A stretch of 64,000 nucleotides of DNA, taken from the NCBI GenBank assembly GCA_019247305.1, contig JAFAPC010000178.1, positions 1 to 64,000 on the forward strand, in the 5' to 3' direction. This stretch comes from Pseudonocardiales bacterium. Lineage in GTDB: Bacteria; Actinomycetota; Actinomycetes; Mycobacteriales; Pseudonocardiaceae. Shown here one piece after another: positions 21,746 to 28,400 of the stretch (the stretch's first letter is position 1; every line of letters starts with the position of its first letter). The notes beneath the pieces are model-generated. The model saw only the letters and a program-made list of their open reading frames with translations, did no database searches and was not told the DNA's origin. A program made the translations under genes and the position numbers.

Positions 21746-24070
21746 ATGCCGGTGACCTCGTCGGTTGATTCGCCCTCGTCCGCCATGCGGTCGGTTGAGC
21801 TGTCCATCGGAGGGATGACGTGCGCAGCCTGCGCGGCGCGAGTGGAGCGCAAGCTCAACAAGCTGGACGGCGTGCACGCCAGCGTGAACTACGCAAGCGA
21901 GAAAGCCAGCGTGGCCCTCGCCGCTGAGGTAGAGATCGCAGAGTTGATCGCGCAAGTGGAGCGCGCCGGCTACCGCGCCACGCCGATCGAGCCCGAGGCG
22001 ACGCCGCACGACGAGCAGACCGACGCCCCGGTTCGGTCTCTGTTGCGTCGGCTGGTGGTGGCGCTGCTACTCGGGGTGCCGCTGGGGGATCTGTCCCTGA
22101 CGGTGGTGTTCCTGCCGTCCTCGCGGTTCACCGGGTGGCAATGGGTGCTGCTGGCGATGACCTTGCCGGTAGTGACGTGGTGCGCCTGGCCGTTTCACCG
22201 CAAGGCCATCGTCGCCGCTAGACATGGTTCGACCTCGATGGACACTCTGGTGTCGTTGGGCATCACCGCGGCTAGCTGCTGGTCGGTGTACACCATGTTC
22301 GCCAACACCGGCGCGGAGCAACGGGGCGAGGGTGGTTGGGGACTCATCTTCCGGCCCGCTGGCTCCATCTACCTCGACGTGGCCGTCGGCGTGACGATCT
22401 TCCTGCTCGGTGGACGGCTGTTCGAGGCGCAGGCCAAGCGGCGGGCCGGCGGTGCGCTCAGCGGATTGGCCAAGATCGGTGCGCGAGACGTGTCTGTGCG
22501 GCGCGACGACGGGCAGGAGTACCGCATCCCGGTCACGCAGCTACGCCTGGGCGATCACTTCGTGGTTCGCCCTGGCGAGACCATCGCGACCGACGGCGAG
22601 GTGGTGCTGGGGCACAGCGGGGTGGACAGCAGCGCGATGACCGGAGAATCAGCGCCCATCGAGGTATCCCAGGGCAGTCCGGTCATCGGCGGCACCATCG
22701 CCCTGAACGGCCGGCTGGTCATCCGCGCCACCGCCGTGGGCAAAGACACTCAGCTAGCCCAACTGGTGCGGTTGGTCGAGCACGCGCAGCATGACAAGGC
22801 CAGCGTGCAGCGGCTCGCGGACCGCATCTGCGGGGTGTTCGTTCCGGTCGTGCTCACCTTGGCGATCTTGACCTTCCTCGGGTGGCTGGTCATCGACGGG
22901 TCGATCGAGCACGCGTTCAGTTCAGCGCTGGCAGTGCTGATCATCGCTTGTCCGTGCGCGCTGGGGCTGGCTACGCCGACGGCGCTCCTGGTGGCCTCCG
23001 GGCGCGGAGCGGAACTGGGCATCTTCATCAAGGGTCACCAGGCGTTGGAGTCGGCCAAAGCCATCGACACGGTGGTGTGGGACAAGACGGGAACCCTCAC
23101 CACCGGCCGGATGACGGTAGTCGATATTGCCCTGGTCGATGGGACCCTGGTGGAGGGGACCCTGGTGGACGGGATCCGGGGCGCGGGCGCCGAGCTGGAC
23201 ACGCTGCTGCGCCACGCCGGTGCCGTGGAGGACGCCTCCGAGCATGTCGTCGCCGCGGCGATCAGCGCGCTGGCCCGGGCCGGGCTGGGGAGCCTCCCTC
23301 CGGTCGCGGAGTTCACCAGCCTGTCCGGTCTCGGCGCCCGGGGCGTGGTTGACGGCCAGGACGTGCTGGTCGGATCGGCCCGACTGCTAACGGCGCACGG
23401 CATCCCGGTGCCCACCGCGCTGGAGGAGCGGCGGCTGCGCTGGGAACAACAGGGCTGCACGACCGTGGTGGTGGCTGCGGACGGAGTGGCCGAAGGCGCC
23501 TTCGCGCTGGCCGACACCGTGCGGCCCAGCGCGGCCGGGGCAGTCACCGAGCTGCTCCGACTCGGGCTGCGCACGGTACTGCTCACCGGCGACAACGCGG
23601 CCACCGCCCGGGCAGTCGCCGCGCAGGCCGGCATCGACGAGGTCATCGCTGAGGTGCTGCCGCAGGACAAAGCCGCCGTGATCGAGACGCTGCAGGCTCA
23701 GGGGCATTCCGTGGCCATGGTCGGCGACGGCGTCAACGACGCACCCGCGCTGGCCCGCGCCAACCTCGGCTTGGCGGTCGTCTCCGGCACCGACGTCGCG
23801 CTCGGCGCCGCCGATCTGATCCTGATGCGTACTGACCTCACCGTGGTGCCCAACGCGATCACGCTGGCCCGAAGCACCCTGCGCACCATTCACAGCAACC
23901 TTGCCTGGGCGTTCAGCTACAACATCGCCGCGCTGCCGCTCGCGGCCCTCGGCCTGCTCAATCCCCTGATCGCCGGTGGTGCCATGACGATGTCCTCGCT
24001 GTTCGTCGTGTCGAACAGCCTGCGCCTACGCAGGTTCGGGCGAGTCTTGGGGGCGTCAAACAGCCACTGA
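21746..24070 (+). CDS. Heavy-metal (copper-type) P1B ATPase
   Basis: 774 residues from ATG 21746, preceded by GGGAGGTGAG. It has an N-terminal metal-binding domain with GGMTCAACAARV, about eight membrane helices and the transport motif ACPCALGLATP typical of Cu+ exporters. The actuator site is MTGESAP, the phosphorylation site DKTGTLTTG, and the hinge MVGDGVNDAPAL. The nucleotide-domain His-Pro signature (SEHPxA in the family) reads SEHVVA. The C-terminal helices have YNIAALPLAALGLLNP and MTMSSLFVVSNSLRLRR, again typical of CopA/CtpV. It probably exports Cu+. No CsoR or chaperone gene is adjacent. Confidence 0.92.
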   Translation: MPVTSSVDSPSSAMRSVELSIGGMTCAACAARVERKLNKLDGVHASVNYASEKASVALAAEVEIAELIAQVERAGYRATPIEPEATPHDEQTDAPVRSLLRRLVVALLLGVPLGDLSLTVVFLPSSRFTGWQWVLLAMTLPVVTWCAWPFHRKAIVAARHGSTSMDTLVSLGITAASCWSVYTMFANTGAEQRGEGGWGLIFRPAGSIYLDVAVGVTIFLLGGRLFEAQAKRRAGGALSGLAKIGARDVSVRRDDGQEYRIPVTQLRLGDHFVVRPGETIATDGEVVLGHSGVDSSAMTGESAPIEVSQGSPVIGGTIALNGRLVIRATAVGKDTQLAQLVRLVEHAQHDKASVQRLADRICGVFVPVVLTLAILTFLGWLVIDGSIEHAFSSALAVLIIACPCALGLATPTALLVASGRGAELGIFIKGHQALESAKAIDTVVWDKTGTLTTGRMTVVDIALVDGTLVEGTLVDGIRGAGAELDTLLRHAGAVEDASEHVVAAAISALARAGLGSLPPVAEFTSLSGLGARGVVDGQDVLVGSARLLTAHGIPVPTALEERRLRWEQQGCTTVVVAADGVAEGAFALADTVRPSAAGAVTELLRLGLRTVLLTGDNAATARAVAAQAGIDEVIAEVLPQDKAAVIETLQAQGHSVAMVGDGVNDAPALARANLGLAVVSGTDVALGAADLILMRTDLTVVPNAITLARSTLRTIHSNLAWAFSYNIAALPLAALGLLNPLIAGGAMTMSSLFVVSNSLRLRRFGRVLGASNSH

Positions 24071-24088
24071 CCGATTCGCCGTTGTGGC

Positions 24089-24943
24089 TTACTCATTACC
24101 ACCCTGCTCACCCATAGCATATTTGTAATATTCAGACGGAAAAGGTGTGGTGCAACCACAATTTTCATCCGACACCGAAGGCACAATATTACGGAGTAGA
24201 AGTTTGAGTGTCTGGACATTAAGATGGAAGATTTTCAGTACGTCGGCGAATAAGCTACCAGCTTGCAACTCTCGCTTGACGCGAGACACGCCAACGTCGT
24301 AGTCAGTGATCATCGCCAGGGTCGCGTAACAGATGCCGCTCTCCCGAGCGTAGTAGCACTCCGGGTACTGGGTCATGTTCACGATCGACCATCCTTGCTT
24401 TGAAAACCAGCGACTCTCAGCGCGAGACGAGAAACGTGGACCTTGTATAACCACTACGGTGCCACCGTTGTGCACCCGCACCTTCATCGTCCTGGCGCGA
24501 CAGCACATCACCATTCTTAAAGTCGGACAATAAGGCTCAGCAAAAGGCAGGTGTATTGGTGGCCCATCCTGATGCTGGTCTCTACCCCAGGTGAGGTTTA
24601 CTAGCTGATCGGGTACGACCAAGTCAGTCGGATGTATCTTGCGGCGTAAGCTGCCAGCGATACAGGTTGCGATAATCTGACGTACGCCGAGTGATTGCAG
24701 CGCTGCGATGTTTGCCCGGTATGGAACGGCGTGCGGCGCAAGCGAGTGGTCGACATCGTGCCGTGGCAGAAACGCGGCTTTACGCGTGCTGTTATCCCAG
24801 CCCGGCACTTCGCAGATGCTGATCTCGCCAGAGGGATACCCAAACCGAGTGAGCGGCTTGACACGCCTGACGACTGGGAACACGTCCTGGTAGCACAATC
24901 CTGAGCCGCCGATAATGGCGAGCCGTATTTTTTCCTCAGCCAC
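24089..24943 (-). CDS. 5'-methylthioadenosine phosphorylase/PNP-family enzyme paired with a radical SAM enzyme
   Basis: 284 residues from GTG 24943, overlapping the end of the radical SAM gene by 8 bases. MTAP/PNP type-II features: phosphate loop IIGGSG, FLPRH (the family RHGxxH is altered to RHDVDH), YRANIAALQSLGVRQIIATC, DLVVPDQLVNLTWGR, IQGPRFSSRAESR, VNMTQYPECYYARE and TDYD. The family phosphorolyses 5'-methylthioadenosine, and some members accept 5'-deoxyadenosine, the by-product of radical SAM catalysis. Coupling to the radical SAM gene suggests removal of that inhibitory product. The 3' end is AT-rich relative to the genome, a sign of transfer. Confidence 0.85.
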   Translation of the reverse strand: MAEEKIRLAIIGGSGLCYQDVFPVVRRVKPLTRFGYPSGEISICEVPGWDNSTRKAAFLPRHDVDHSLAPHAVPYRANIAALQSLGVRQIIATCIAGSLRRKIHPTDLVVPDQLVNLTWGRDQHQDGPPIHLPFAEPYCPTLRMVMCCRARTMKVRVHNGGTVVVIQGPRFSSRAESRWFSKQGWSIVNMTQYPECYYARESGICYATLAMITDYDVGVSRVKRELQAGSLFADVLKIFHLNVQTLKLLLRNIVPSVSDENCGCTTPFPSEYYKYAMGEQGGNE

Positions 24944-26318
24944 TGTTGTCCACTTCGGGGCACATAGTCCAGATGAGACGGTCGAACATCTTTAGCGTGA
25001 AGACGCAGGCAGCGTCGTCAATCGCGAACGGATCACCCTTCAGCTCCAGCGTGTTCCAGGGGCAGCCACCACCACAGATACTCTTTGCATCGCAGGGGAG
25101 GCAGGCGGGGTTATAGAGAGGCAACCGCTGACGCCAAGCCCGCACTTCAGGCACATCTGACAGACGCATGCCACCTTGTAATTGCGTGACCATACCTGTA
25201 CCGGTGTCAATGAAGGGGCAGTTTCCAACCCGACCCCAAGGATCGATCACAATCTGGTTCCCGTAGGCGTTGCAGTCAGTCGGGAAGAAATGACGCTCGA
25301 AGAAGGCTTGATATTTTCGCTCCACCTGGGCCTCCAGGTGCCGTTTGCCAAAATTGTCGAAATTGGCCAAAATGCCTGCCGCAGCCCGTTCATAATAGGC
25401 AGACAAGTCTTCTCTTCGCATCAACGTGAAAAGCAGTTTACCGCGCAGGAAATTGAAGCCGAACTTCACTACCCCGACATTCTCAAAAAAGGCCGAGTAG
25501 TTTTCGATGTGGTCGAGATTTTCCGGTGTGACACTGACCGAGGCAAAGGTCTGTACACCTTCAGCGACTAATAGTCGAATGCTACGTTCCACTTCGGCGA
25601 ATGTCGTTTGACCGTTCGCTGCGCGACGGTGGGCATCGTGAAACTCAGCCGGGCCGTCACAGCCAACGGCGACGCTGACACCGTGCTGTGCCAAGAAGCG
25701 CACGTAGCCGGGATCAAGCAAAACGCCGTTAGTCGAGAGTATTAGTTTGACGTTTGCTCGCGGAAGCGCGCCCACCGCTTGCAAGTGCCTGACATACTCG
25801 ACGCCAGCCGTCACGGCTTCGCGATTCAATAGTGGCTCGCCACCGTAGAAGATGACGGCATAATCATTGCCTGGGGCAAAATCAGTCTTGATGTCATCAA
25901 CCCAGGAGTCTATGGCCACGCGTAGGGTATCCATTGACATGTACGCTTCGCCCTTGTCGCGGACCAGGCTAGGAATGGGACAGTAGTTGCAGGCGAAGTT
26001 GCAGCCCCGAGCCATAATCAGGTAGAGAATGCTGGCACGGTCGAGTCGTCGTTCCAGTTCGACCCGGGCTTCGGTCAGCGCCTCAGCGTCCTCAGTAAAG
26101 TTATCGATAAGAAGACCACGGACACGCAGCTCTCGGCGGAGGACGGGTGCGAGAATAGCCGGTCTATCCCGGATGCTGCGCCACTGATCGGTCTTCAGAT
26201 AAACCGGATCAGGATGCAGTTCATGGAATACAACCGTCAACTCACCCCGCTCTCGACACCGTAGATAGCTCGAGTAACGCACGCGCGCGGACCCACTTAG
26301 GCCAGCTCGCCCCGCCAC
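24936..26318 (-). CDS. Radical SAM/SPASM enzyme, putative peptide-modifying maturase
   Basis: 460 residues from GTG 26318; a GTG at 26282 is an alternative. The radical SAM cluster motif is CNFACNYC near residue 109. The barrel follows with YAVIFYGGEPLLNRE (GGEP motif), LSTNGVLL and VAVGCDGP. The C-terminal SPASM domain carries further Cys ligands (VGNCPFID, CLPCDAKSICGGGCPWN, DAACVF) for auxiliary Fe-S clusters, as in maturases of ribosomal peptides such as AlbA, MftC and anSME. About 100 N-terminal residues precede the barrel and may bind the substrate. The small ORF immediately upstream is the natural substrate candidate. Confidence 0.9.
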   Translation of the reverse strand: MAGRAGLSGSARVRYSSYLRCRERGELTVVFHELHPDPVYLKTDQWRSIRDRPAILAPVLRRELRVRGLLIDNFTEDAEALTEARVELERRLDRASILYLIMARGCNFACNYCPIPSLVRDKGEAYMSMDTLRVAIDSWVDDIKTDFAPGNDYAVIFYGGEPLLNREAVTAGVEYVRHLQAVGALPRANVKLILSTNGVLLDPGYVRFLAQHGVSVAVGCDGPAEFHDAHRRAANGQTTFAEVERSIRLLVAEGVQTFASVSVTPENLDHIENYSAFFENVGVVKFGFNFLRGKLLFTLMRREDLSAYYERAAAGILANFDNFGKRHLEAQVERKYQAFFERHFFPTDCNAYGNQIVIDPWGRVGNCPFIDTGTGMVTQLQGGMRLSDVPEVRAWRQRLPLYNPACLPCDAKSICGGGCPWNTLELKGDPFAIDDAACVFTLKMFDRLIWTMCPEVDNSG

Positions 26319-26482
26319 ACCTTATGCAGGAGATCAGCCCACTGGTCTTCGGTGAGCTGGACGCGGCCTCCGAAGTCATCCCGCAGCACGATCCCGAGCC
26401 CACTGAACTCGACAGTTGGACAGCAACCTTGCACTCCGCACAGGGTAACAACCCGGCCGCTGCGCTCGTCCCCTGTGAGCAT
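26297..26482 (-). CDS. 61-residue Cys-containing peptide, candidate substrate of the radical SAM enzyme
   Basis: ATG 26482 with GAGGGG about 11 bases upstream. The stop (26297) overlaps the start region of the radical SAM gene. The N-terminal half is VVTLCGVQGCCPTVEF, with three Cys in seven residues. The C-terminal half is charged and helical (GGRVQLTEDQWADLLHKVWR). I do not recognise a described RiPP precursor family. The order, size and coupling fit a precursor, but it could also be a small partner or regulator protein. No gly-gly or other cleavage motif is obvious. Confidence 0.6.
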   Translation of the reverse strand: MLTGDERSGRVVTLCGVQGCCPTVEFSGLGIVLRDDFGGRVQLTEDQWADLLHKVWRGELA

Positions 26483-26536
26483 GGTACAGTATTCCCCTCG
26501 TTACCAGACTGACGATAACCCGGGCTGAAAATAGGA

Positions 26537-26565
26537 AGTATAGCATAAGTAACATGGCACGACAA
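26537..26565 (-). promoter_or_regulatory. Sigma70-type promoter for the peptide/radical SAM operon
   Basis: On the minus strand -35 TTGTCG (26565-26560), a 17-bp spacer and -10 TATACT (26542-26537) lie about 55 bp upstream of the peptide start. This gap is AT-rich compared with the genome and is shared with the divergent ABC-F gene. Confidence 0.6.
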
Positions 26566-26579
26566 GAGCGGGGTCGGTC

Positions 26580-28244
26580 ATGCCCCTGACCGCCAACGGC
26601 ATCAAAAAGAGTTACGGCCCCCGAGAGGTACTCTCGGGTATCAGCCTGGGGCTAAACGCCGGGGATCGTCTGGCTCTCATCGGCGCTAACGGCGTCGGAA
26701 AATCCACATTACTCCGCATCCTTGCCAGCCTTGAGGAGCCCGACGAAGGTAGCGTCACACACTCGACGAGAGACGAGATCGGCTACCTCGCGCAGACAGT
26801 CCCTTCCGTCTCCGGTGAAACCATCCAAGACGTGGTTGCCACATCGGTGGCCGGCTTGCGAGCACTGGAAGAGCGCATGCGTGAGTTGGAGCAGCTCATG
26901 GCCGACGGAGTCGTTGACCAGGCGGCACTCGATGAATATGGCGATGTCTCCCATCACTTCGAAAGCCGTGGCGGCTATGAGCTGGACTCGAACATTGATC
27001 GTGTGCTGGCCGGCCTGGGTGTCGGCTACCTAACCCGTAGTCGCCGCTTAGATCAGCTCTCTGGCGGCGAGAAGGCACGCGTCGCTTTGGCAGCGCTGCT
27101 GCTTTCAGCTCCCGATGTGCTTCTCCTCGATGAGCCAACAAACGACCTGGACGACCGTATGCTGGCTTGGCTTGAGGACTATCTGGCGCATTACGGTGGC
27201 GGCATACTCTTCACCAGTCACGACCGCGATTTCATCGATAGCATCGCCACGAGCATCTTGGAACTGGACGAACATATGCGGACCCTCGTGCGCTACGAAG
27301 GAAATTACGAACGATATTTGCAGGCCAAGCAGGCCGCTCGCGTGCGCGCACAGCAGGAGTATGACACCCAGCAAGAAGAGATCGCCGAGCTCAAAGAGAA
27401 GCTTCATTCGACCGCGCGTTCCGTCGGGCACAGCCGGATGGCGAAGGACCATGATAAGCATGTCTATAACTTTCGCGGGGCGGGCGTTGAGAGAGCTGTT
27501 AGTCGCAACATCCGAAACGCACAGGAACGCCTTGAACGTATCGAGGCCAACCTGCTGCGGCCGCCAGCCGAGCCGCTTCAATTCAAGGCATCGTTTGGAG
27601 CAGCACAGCTGCCCAAGGGCGCAACTGTTGTCGAGGGCCGCGACATAGACTTGCGCTACGGCGACCGAGTAATACTCGATCATGTCTCGTGCGCCCTCGA
27701 CGTAGGAGACCGAGTCTGCCTTATCGGGCCCAACGGCGCAGGAAAGTCAAGCCTTGTGAAGCTGCTAGTCGGAGTAGTCACGCCCGACGCAGGCACAGTG
27801 ACATGGCGTAAGGGCGTGCGCGTAGGCTACCTACCCCAAGAACCTCAGCTACCTGACCTGAACCAGTCCGTCGCCGCGAACGTCACCCTTGGCTTGCAAA
27901 AGGCAGGCCTCGAAGGAGTCACCGACCAAGCACGCGGCTGGTTAGTGCGGTGGGGTCTACTGGAGCGTGACGATCTCCGCAAACGAGCCGACGATCTATC
28001 AACGGGACAGCAACGAAAAGTCGAGCTGGGAATCCTCATCGGCTCGAACCCCGACATTCTCTTGCTCGATGAGCCTACCAATCATCTGTCGTTCGACGTG
28101 CTCGAGTCCTTGCAGTCGGCTCTTGGTGACTTCGATGGTCCGGTGCTGGTTGTGACGCATGATCGACGCTTGATCCGGCAATTCCCGACCATCCTATGGT
28201 CGCTGGAGCAAGGAAAACTTCTCGTCTCAGACCCGGATCGATGA
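26580..28244 (+). CDS. ABC-F family ATPase (ribosome protection/translation factor type)
   Basis: 554 residues with two ABC domains and no membrane part. Domain 1: GANGVGKST, LSGGEKARVALAALL, LLLDEPTNDLDD. Domain 2: GPNGAGKSS, LSTGQQRKVELG, LLLDEPTNHLSF. Between them (about residues 245-330) is the helical P-site tRNA-interaction linker. Length and layout match the actinobacterial antibiotic-resistance ABC-F proteins (OleB, TlrC, CarA) as well as housekeeping members. It starts 97 bp from the peptide gene, in the opposite direction, and shares its less GC-biased composition. Self-protection against a ribosome-targeting product is therefore an attractive but unproven idea. Confidence 0.9.
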   Translation: MPLTANGIKKSYGPREVLSGISLGLNAGDRLALIGANGVGKSTLLRILASLEEPDEGSVTHSTRDEIGYLAQTVPSVSGETIQDVVATSVAGLRALEERMRELEQLMADGVVDQAALDEYGDVSHHFESRGGYELDSNIDRVLAGLGVGYLTRSRRLDQLSGGEKARVALAALLLSAPDVLLLDEPTNDLDDRMLAWLEDYLAHYGGGILFTSHDRDFIDSIATSILELDEHMRTLVRYEGNYERYLQAKQAARVRAQQEYDTQQEEIAELKEKLHSTARSVGHSRMAKDHDKHVYNFRGAGVERAVSRNIRNAQERLERIEANLLRPPAEPLQFKASFGAAQLPKGATVVEGRDIDLRYGDRVILDHVSCALDVGDRVCLIGPNGAGKSSLVKLLVGVVTPDAGTVTWRKGVRVGYLPQEPQLPDLNQSVAANVTLGLQKAGLEGVTDQARGWLVRWGLLERDDLRKRADDLSTGQQRKVELGILIGSNPDILLLDEPTNHLSFDVLESLQSALGDFDGPVLVVTHDRRLIRQFPTILWSLEQGKLLVSDPDR

Positions 28245-28400
28245 GCAGCGCCGCGGTTGATCTCCGGCTAAAATTACGCCGCTCAGGCGGGCATCGCTGG
28301 CTCGGTGGGGCACACCTCGCGGGTAGCTGAGGCGACGGCTTCATCGCCGCCGCCCTGCTGGGCTGACGCTGGCGAGCGCTGCTCGCGTAGCGTGTTGGCT

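What the first reader, a model, noticed from the sequence alone, without database searches (positions are those of the whole stretch)
24089..28244. Peptide + radical SAM/SPASM + MTA-phosphorylase operon with a divergent ABC-F gene: candidate undescribed peptide-modifying system
A 61-residue peptide with three Cys in seven residues, a radical SAM/SPASM enzyme and an MTAP/PNP-family enzyme form one operon with overlapping genes behind a good promoter. Radical SAM reactions release 5'-deoxyadenosine (or methylthioadenosine), and MTAP-type enzymes can split such nucleosides, so the third gene may be a dedicated by-product scavenger. An ABC-F protein of the ribosome-protection size is divergent from it. 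The block is less GC-rich than its flanks, between two conserved regions, which suggests acquisition as a unit. I do not recognise the peptide from any named RiPP class.
Basis: partly seen in the sequence, partly recalled or inferred. Interest (0 to 1): 0.82.

Follow-up and report, generated by a model that had tools for sequence, protein, structure and literature searches.

The report
Peptide-modifying cassette with ribosome-protection gene
A small cysteine-rich peptide, an enzyme likely to modify it and a nucleoside-splitting enzyme, mostly with a ribosome-protection-type protein, recur together in very distant bacteria, which suggests an undescribed way of making a peptide-derived, antibiotic-like compound.

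Summary
The window's 61-aa peptide, radical SAM/SPASM enzyme and MTAP-type phosphorylase recur in the same order in eight Patescibacteria-type genomes. All nine peptides carry CGxxGCCP: six-frame search finds it once in each of the nine loci and in none of 33 other records. The nine radical SAM proteins form one clade, as do the nine phosphorylases. ABC-F adjoins 7 of 9 loci but is not one lineage: the window's groups with Streptomyces ABC-Fs, the six Patescibacterial ones form another clade. Both loci without ABC-F carry related nucleotidyltransferases; three loci carry a P-loop kinase. In the window the block replaced most of a LigD gene that 9 of 10 genus-mates keep. Best reading: a minimal RiPP-like cassette with a dedicated phosphorylase, whose ABC-F, nucleotidyltransferase and kinase genes give self-protection. 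Whether the phosphorylase clears 5'-deoxyadenosine or strips adenine from an adenosyl-modified peptide is open. No Pfam or NCBIfam family matches the peptide. Structure prediction never ran. Chemistry and antibiotic role are inferred.

The parts
26297..26482 (-). 61-aa precursor-like peptide, core VVTLCGVQGCCPTVE, conserved C-terminal part GIVLRDDFGGRVQLTEDQW
   Evidence: nine-member alignment; C15, G16, G19, C20, C21, P22, D36, V41, L43, Q47 invariant; motif once per locus
24936..26318 (-). Radical SAM/SPASM enzyme, 460 aa, CxxxCxxC at C106/C110/C113, all seven SPASM Cys positions (C349, C367, C406, C409, C415, C419, C438)
24089..24943 (-). MTAP-type nucleoside phosphorylase, 284 aa
26580..28244 (+). 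ABC-F protein of ribosome-protection type, 554 aa, divergent from the operon
   Evidence: NF000355 385.2 bits, cutoff 380
24043..28270 (.). Inserted block holding all four genes; left edge in the 3' end of the copper-ATPase-like gene, right edge in a LigD-gene remnant
   Evidence: similarity to genus-mates stops at 24042 (L096) or 24038 (L103) and, for L096, resumes at 28271
28271..28326 (.). 56-bp remnant of the LigD primase-polymerase gene that 9 of 10 genus-mates keep beside msrB
   Evidence: 89% identical to L096 1115-1169; PF21686 286.2 bits for the L096 protein
26537..26565 (-). weak sigma-70-like promoter match upstream of the peptide gene
   Evidence: 3 matches found in the region, mean 1.7 in shuffles

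Best explanation
A mobile, minimal peptide-modification cassette. SHOWN by sequence: a small peptide with an invariant CGxxGCCP core and a conserved C-terminal part, a radical SAM enzyme and an MTAP-type phosphorylase stand together in fixed order in two phyla, with ABC-F (7 of 9 loci) or a nucleotidyltransferase beside them. INFERRED: (1) the radical SAM enzyme recognises the C-terminal part and modifies the CGxxGCCP core (about 0.8); (2) the phosphorylase is a dedicated step of the same pathway: either it splits the 5'-deoxyadenosine released at each turnover, relieving product inhibition, or it removes adenine from a 5'-deoxyadenosyl group that the radical SAM enzyme has placed on the peptide, leaving a 5-linked ribose-1-phosphate (scavenging somewhat more likely); (3) the product acts on translation, and ABC-F, nucleotidyltransferase and P-loop kinase are interchangeable self-protection genes: ribosome protection, adenylylation, phosphorylation (about 0.55).
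For: Nine loci with peptide, radical SAM and MTAP in that order. CGxxGCCP once in each of the nine and in 0 of 33 other records, 446,398 bases six-frame in all. Nine radical SAM proteins one clade against 14 others, 100/100; nine MTAPs one clade against 12 others, 100/99; L051 with L022+L065 in both trees. The window block replaced most of a LigD gene kept by 9 of 10 genus-mates. ABC-Fs reach the NCBIfam ribosomal-protection cutoff of 380 bits in 6 of 6 scanned (window 385.2; five others 390.4-418). ABC-F paired twice: window with four Streptomyces ABC-Fs 100/100, six Patescibacterial ones apart 100/100. L050 and L065, in different radical SAM subclades, have no ABC-F in their genomes at E<=1e-50 and carry related nucleotidyltransferases, 29% over 258 residues, E 3e-36. 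P-loop kinase beside L051, L069 and L070.
Against: No exporter or dedicated protease lies in the window block, and none was recognised by eye in the other stretches, unusual for a secreted RiPP. ABC-F may serve translation rather than immunity. The nucleotidyltransferases and kinase have only weak family links; the nucleotidyltransferase profile has no PDB match better than E 0.26; another nucleotidyltransferase lies near a different radical SAM locus (L066), so that adjacency is less telling. The cassette is rare: 1 of 396 Actinomycetota sampled, the window itself. No structure was obtained.
Confidence: 0.55

Rival explanations
1. Scavenger model with an ordinary thioether RiPP: the radical SAM enzyme makes a sactipeptide- or ranthipeptide-type thioether from the Cys residues, and the MTAP only clears 5'-deoxyadenosine, which inhibits the enzyme (inhibition recalled).
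For: Best PDB match of the radical SAM profile is 5wgg, recalled as the thioether maturase CteB. In the window genome and in 7 of 8 Patescibacteria carriers the cassette MTAP is the only homologue found at E<=1e-3 (G901 has a second, E 4.9e-6), so the host seems to lack another MTAP-type outlet. Residues recalled as phosphate- and adenine-binding (S14, R61, H62, T191, D214) and H131 are invariant.
Against: 10 of 13 Patescibacteria with related SPASM enzymes but no cassette have no MTAP homologue. Cassette MTAPs share Q167 (9 of 9; 0 of 12 others), N116 (8 of 9; 0 of 12) and C196 (9 of 9; 0 of 12), not expected of a plain scavenger. MTAN nucleosidase was not searched for.
Confidence: 0.35
2. 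Adenosyl-tailoring model: the radical SAM enzyme adds 5'-deoxyadenosine to a peptide residue, perhaps a Cys; the phosphorylase removes adenine by arsenosugar-like logic, leaving a peptide-linked ribose-1-phosphate that kinase or nucleotidyltransferase may act on.
For: 3 of 10 fetched plasmid MTAP regions look like arsenosugar neighbourhoods: B. glumae, MTAP followed by TIGR04283 and TIGR04282 glycosyltransferases, ArsS about 6 kb away on the other strand; Rhodococcus, MTAP followed by epimerase, glycosyltransferase and DUF2064, no radical SAM annotated in the stretch; Acinetobacter, TIGR04282 gene about 2.2 kb away on the other strand. Radical SAM adenosylation of arsenic is stated in PMC12159101 (passages). 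Phosphorylases act in related pathways: NucPNP on MTA and adenosine, FlB on 5'-fluoro-5'-deoxyadenosine (PMC8694150, passages). Clade-specific residues.
Against: No adenosylating SPASM peptide maturase turned up in the searches; arsenosugar-type MTAPs do not group with the cassette MTAPs; none of the three shows radical SAM and MTAP in one operon; the pocket residue H131 is of the ordinary type.
Confidence: 0.25
3. Translation or redox module, not an antibiotic: the matured peptide stays in the cell as a cofactor-like or metal-binding protein, and ABC-F is a translation factor for its stress function.
For: The conserved C-terminal part and the lack of a recognised exporter look more like a retained small protein; radical SAM enzymes also mature cofactor peptides such as those of PQQ and mycofactocin (recalled).
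Against: Replacement of ABC-F by nucleotidyltransferases and addition of kinases resemble resistance genes more than cofactor metabolism; rarity and mobility do not suit a housekeeping cofactor.
Confidence: 0.2
4. Anti-phage defence module.
For: L036 lies beside what reads as a DNA-methyltransferase gene (by eye). Weak PADLOC matches: radical SAM to prokaryotic viperin 30.3 bits; nucleotidyltransferases of L050 and L052 to PDC-S09, 24.2 and 26 bits; ABC-F to several ATPase models, best mad3 158.3 bits.
Against: No PADLOC match for peptide, MTAP or kinase; the ABC-F passes the ribosomal-protection cutoff; no relatives in viral contigs.
Confidence: 0.07

Closest known systems
SPASM radical SAM peptide maturases (FibroRumin TIGR04136; CteB-type thioether maturases)
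   Same: Radical SAM core plus SPASM next to a small Cys-containing peptide; TIGR04136 is the best NCBIfam match; 5wgg the best PDB match
   Different: 142.6 bits against a cutoff of 400; the two FibroRumin-annotated peptides in L049 have many Cys and no CGxxGCCP; MTAP and ABC-F added; 0 of 8 Patescibacterial members keep C406, C409 or C438, 2 of 8 keep C415 (recalled as ligands of cluster AuxII)
Arsenosugar gene neighbourhoods (ArsS radical SAM, MTAP, glycosyltransferases)
   Same: Radical SAM enzyme and MTAP-type phosphorylase in one neighbourhood in B. glumae, about 6 kb apart on opposite strands
   Different: No peptide, other radical SAM family, glycosyltransferases; MTAPs not in the cassette clade
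Nucleocidin and fluorometabolite phosphorylases NucPNP and FlB
   Same: Nucleoside phosphorylase as a pathway step; the nucleocidin cluster also has NucJ, annotated radical SAM (PMC8694150, passages)
   Different: Small-molecule nucleoside pathways without a peptide
TlrC/CarA/OleB/SrmB producer ABC-F self-resistance proteins
   Same: Window ABC-F scores 455.5 bits to NF000171 and groups with Streptomyces plasmid ABC-Fs
   Different: Below the 800-bit cutoff; no macrolide-type biosynthetic gene among the four genes of the block
Graspetide loci of Candidate Phyla Radiation bacteria (PMC8939145, passages)
   Same: Predicted RiPP loci in the same kind of small-genome bacteria, many Branch 2 loci with SPASM maturases
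   Different: ATP-grasp based; no MTAP or ABC-F mentioned in the passages seen

Membership tests
SPASM radical SAM peptide maturase | CxxxCxxC and GGEP motifs of the radical SAM core | tested here: met
   CxxxCxxC Cys 9 of 9; YGGEPLLN 7 of 7 aligned
SPASM radical SAM peptide maturase | seven-Cys SPASM motif for two auxiliary clusters | tested here: inconclusive
   Window has all seven. 8 of 8 Patescibacterial members keep C349, C367, C419 and have C351; 0 of 8 keep C406, C409 or C438; 2 of 8 (L050, L070) keep C415
SPASM radical SAM peptide maturase | adjacent small peptide with conserved modifiable residues | tested here: met
   9 of 9 loci, C15, C20, C21 invariant
FibroRumin system (TIGR04136) | score above the NCBIfam cutoff of 400 | tested here: not met
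   142.6 bits
Sactipeptide or ranthipeptide | Cys-to-backbone or side-chain thioether | not testable with these tools
   needs mass spectrometry
MTAP (TIGR01694) | score above the NCBIfam cutoff of 274.85 | tested here: not met
   222.5 bits; PRK07823 268.7 of 306; PF01048 passes
MTAP (TIGR01694) | phosphate- and adenine-binding residues (recalled from human MTAP) | tested here: met
   S14, R61, H62, T191, D214 9 of 9; D216 8 of 9, Ala in L052
Ribosome-protection ABC-F (NF000355) | score above the cutoff of 380 | tested here: met
   6 of 6 scanned of the seven cassette ABC-Fs; the L069 protein was not scanned
Ribosome-protection ABC-F (NF000355) | protects ribosomes from an antibiotic | not testable with these tools
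   needs a translation assay
TlrC/CarA producer ABC-F (NF000171) | score above the cutoff of 800 | tested here: not met
   window 455.5; five others 261.7-312.4
Arsenosugar neighbourhood | ArsS and TIGR04282/TIGR04283 glycosyltransferases | tested here: not met
   The block holds only the four genes; no ArsS model among the 25 of 73 NCBIfam rows shown for the radical SAM
Known anti-phage system | PADLOC match beyond single shared domains | tested here: not met
   no match for peptide, MTAP, kinase; single-domain matches for the rest

The most novel reading that the evidence does not exclude
The radical SAM enzyme writes a 5'-deoxyadenosyl group onto the CGxxGCCP core and the MTAP homologue then strips adenine, leaving a peptide-linked ribose-1-phosphate (a peptide sugar-phosphate made from SAM). 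The finished product inhibits translation, and ABC-F, nucleotidyltransferase or kinase protect the producer: a new RiPP class of reduced-genome Patescibacteria that is also found, on a transferred block, in an actinobacterium.
Probability: 0.15. Interest if true: 0.93.

Novelty: new variant of a known kind. Interest (0 to 1): 0.78.

Why it matters
It links three things seldom seen together: a radical SAM peptide maturase, a dedicated nucleoside phosphorylase and swappable translation-resistance-type genes, in a cassette of three or four genes. If the product targets the ribosome, this is a very small antibiotic-like cluster in Patescibacteria, whose means of interaction with other bacteria are poorly known, and it gives a direct test of whether 5'-deoxyadenosine removal or adenosyl tailoring is built into radical SAM peptide pathways. 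The ABC-F/nucleotidyltransferase swap gives a sequence-only clue to the target that can be checked in cell-free translation.

Tried and rejected
A DUF397-like reading of the peptide C-terminus (recalled): no Pfam match at E<=1, no PDB match to the profile at E<=10. FibroRumin membership: failed cutoff and different peptides. Alternative genetic code for G273: listed with table 25, dropped because table 11 gives complete genes. ABC-F as an ancestral core gene: rejected by the tree. Grouping of cassette MTAPs with arsenosugar-type MTAPs: not found. Defence: little support. Viral contigs: five scans, no relatives at tblastn E<=1e-3. Plasmids: radical SAM matches all under 60% identity, the best-ranked 26% over 95% of the query; peptide: no match better than E 0.7. 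Papers: nine searches listed no description of this cassette, judged by titles and starts of abstracts; open-licence PMC papers only, no preprints. Only passages of PMC12159101, PMC12608789, PMC8694150 and PMC8939145 were seen.

Not done: MTAN search, PHROGs search, any search beyond the sampled genomes and the one pattern scan of species genomes, a formal test of chance adjacency. Structure prediction never ran: 17 attempts met a full queue.


Full report
OBSERVATION. The four genes are present at the stated places with the stated domains. The peptide has no Pfam or NCBIfam match at E<=1. The radical SAM passes no cutoff among the 25 of 73 NCBIfam rows shown (best TIGR04136, 142.6 of 400). 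The MTAP homologue is below the MTAP cutoffs (TIGR01694 222.5 of 274.85; PRK07823 268.7 of 306). The ABC-F passes the general ribosomal-protection cutoff (385.2 of 380). The promoter match is ordinary.

HOW RARE. Among 61 genomes, the window's own included, only the window genome has this radical SAM at full score; 13 of 61 had some match at E<=1e-3, the best outside the window genome 65.6 bits. Among 396 Actinomycetota 1 of 396 at E<=1e-45, the window's own. One scan of species genomes for exact 8-residue stretches gave 6 radical SAM loci; one of them, from a Parcubacteria MAG (L022), has all four genes, the other five have neither peptide nor MTAP. Profile searches around it: 7 of 286 genomes of its phylum passed E<=1e-30, 2 of them cassettes, centre included; 11 of 285 of the class of G273 passed 1e-60, 4 cassettes, centre included; 3 of 334 of the class of L022's genome passed 1e-75, 2 cassettes, centre included; 1 of 10, the centre; 5 of 41, centre included. 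These samples overlap. Nine distinct carriers result: window, L022, L036, L050, L051, L052, L065, L069, L070. The last seven are unnamed; I call them Patescibacteria because the tool drew them from the phylum, class or order of L022's genome or of one another. One locus that passed (G236, L032, 3.8-kb contig) was not checked for the peptide.

ANATOMY. Order peptide, radical SAM, MTAP on one strand in 9 of 9. With the starts used the peptide-to-radical-SAM gap is 62 to 136 nt in the eight Patescibacteria and -22 in the window, and radical SAM and MTAP overlap in 8 of 9 (L052: 10 nt apart). Three of those starts are alignment starts, not start codons (MTAP of L051 and L052, radical SAM of L065), so spacing is approximate. 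ABC-F follows on the same strand in 6 of 8 Patescibacteria and is divergent in the window. CGxxGCCP occurs once in each of the nine loci and in none of 33 other records (446,398 bases in all 42). The 33 are controls of convenience: other radical SAM, ABC-F and MTAP loci. Invariant peptide positions: M1, C15, G16, G19, C20, C21, P22, D36, V41, L43, Q47.

CO-INHERITANCE. The nine radical SAM proteins form one clade (100/100) against 14 others, the window branching first (95/94 for the other eight); L053, without the peptide, is their sister (99/98). Several outgroup branches are long. The nine MTAPs form one clade (100/99) against 12 others. L051 groups with L022 and L065 in both trees; L036 with L069 for radical SAM and ABC-F, while for MTAP these two lie in one supported group with L050 and L070. 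Cassette MTAPs share residues that the 12 others lack: Q167 9 of 9 against 0 of 12, N116 8 of 9 against 0 of 12, C196 9 of 9 against 0 of 12. Residues recalled as catalytic are kept, except D216, Ala in L052. The window keeps all seven SPASM Cys; 0 of 8 Patescibacterial enzymes keep C406, C409 or C438 and 2 of 8 keep C415. If these are the AuxII ligands (recalled), the system spans enzymes with two and probably one auxiliary cluster.

ACCESSORY GENES. The ABC-F tree of 18 proteins puts the window with four Streptomyces plasmid ABC-Fs (100/100) and the six Patescibacterial ones in another clade (100/100); well-supported branches force two origins. L050 and L065 have no ABC-F in the genome at E<=1e-50 (the assemblies may be incomplete); both carry a nucleotidyltransferase of one family (29% over 258 residues, E 3e-36), although they lie in different radical SAM subclades. 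L052 has ABC-F and another nucleotidyltransferase (PF01909 28.0 bits, streptomycin adenylyltransferase 25.1 bits). L051, L069 and L070 carry a related P-loop kinase (34-52%). Thus 9 of 9 loci have ABC-F or a nucleotidyltransferase. Against over-reading: a nucleotidyltransferase related to that of L052 lies near another radical SAM locus (L066), and no match shows that these enzymes act on antibiotics.

MOBILITY. In genus-mate G010 (L096) the copper-ATPase-like gene is followed by a LigD primase-polymerase gene (PF21686, 286.2 bits) and then msrB. That gene stands beside msrB in 9 of 10 genus-mates; G003 (L103) lacks it but has the copper-ATPase end about 1.1 kb from msrB. In the window similarity to the mates stops at 24038-24042 and resumes at 28271, with a 56-bp LigD remnant (89% to L096; shorter matches in five other mates) before msrB. 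So the whole block, ABC-F included, most likely replaced most of the LigD gene. Only L096 shows both flanks with the LigD gene between them.

MECHANISM. Peptide modification by the radical SAM enzyme follows from the conserved gene pair. For the phosphorylase two roles remain. Scavenging is favoured by the cassette copy being the only MTAP homologue found in 8 of 9 carriers. Tailoring is favoured by the absence of an MTAP homologue in 10 of 13 Patescibacteria with related SPASM enzymes, by clade-specific residues, and by the arsenosugar precedent: 3 of 10 fetched plasmid MTAP regions look like arsenosugar neighbourhoods, one of them with ArsS about 6 kb away. A review states that a radical SAM enzyme adenosylates arsenic there (PMC12159101, passages); that a phosphorylase then removes adenine is recalled, not read. 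FlB and NucPNP are phosphorylases of other special pathways (PMC8694150, passages). Self-protection is the simplest reason for ABC-F to be paired twice and to be replaced by a nucleotidyltransferase, but a translation role that is not immunity cannot be excluded.

VERDICT. A real, conserved and, within nine searches of one open library, undescribed cassette. It works like a radical SAM RiPP pathway with added phosphorylase and resistance-type genes; product and target are unknown.

Noticed in passing
L021 5998-8133, L053 7999-10077, L066 5428-7650: Other radical SAM/SPASM loci of Patescibacteria lie beside a protein with a helix resembling a zinc-protease HExxH or HELLH motif (by eye; Peptidase_M78 18.1 bits, below its cutoff, for L021; no Pfam match for L053); L021 also has a Cys-rich small ORF upstream. 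Possibly another undescribed peptide system.
   Followed up: no
L053 4330-5320: C-terminal remnant of a cassette-type ABC-F (56% to L022) followed by the same kinase family, without the cassette peptide or MTAP in the stretch; its radical SAM is the sister of the cassette clade. Possibly a decayed or resistance-only copy.
   Followed up: partly
L112, L113, L114: MTAP homologues in arsenosugar-type neighbourhoods on plasmids of Rhodococcus, Burkholderia glumae and Acinetobacter; the actinobacterial one groups apart from the two proteobacterial ones.
   Followed up: partly
L036 2552-4509: Near the G273 cassette lie a DNA-methyltransferase-like gene and a neighbour that reads like a restriction enzyme (by eye, not searched).
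   Followed up: no
L022 3526-4110 and 4571-5050: Two similar proteins of unknown kind upstream of the L022 peptide.
   Followed up: no
Radical SAM proteins of the eight Patescibacterial loci: None keeps C406, C409 or C438 and two keep C415, all have C351, while the window enzyme keeps the whole SPASM set: a natural comparison for the role of the second auxiliary cluster.
   Followed up: partly
L103 (G003), between about 380 and 1500: This genus-mate has the copper-ATPase end and msrB but no LigD gene between them; what fills the 1.1 kb was not examined.
   Followed up: no
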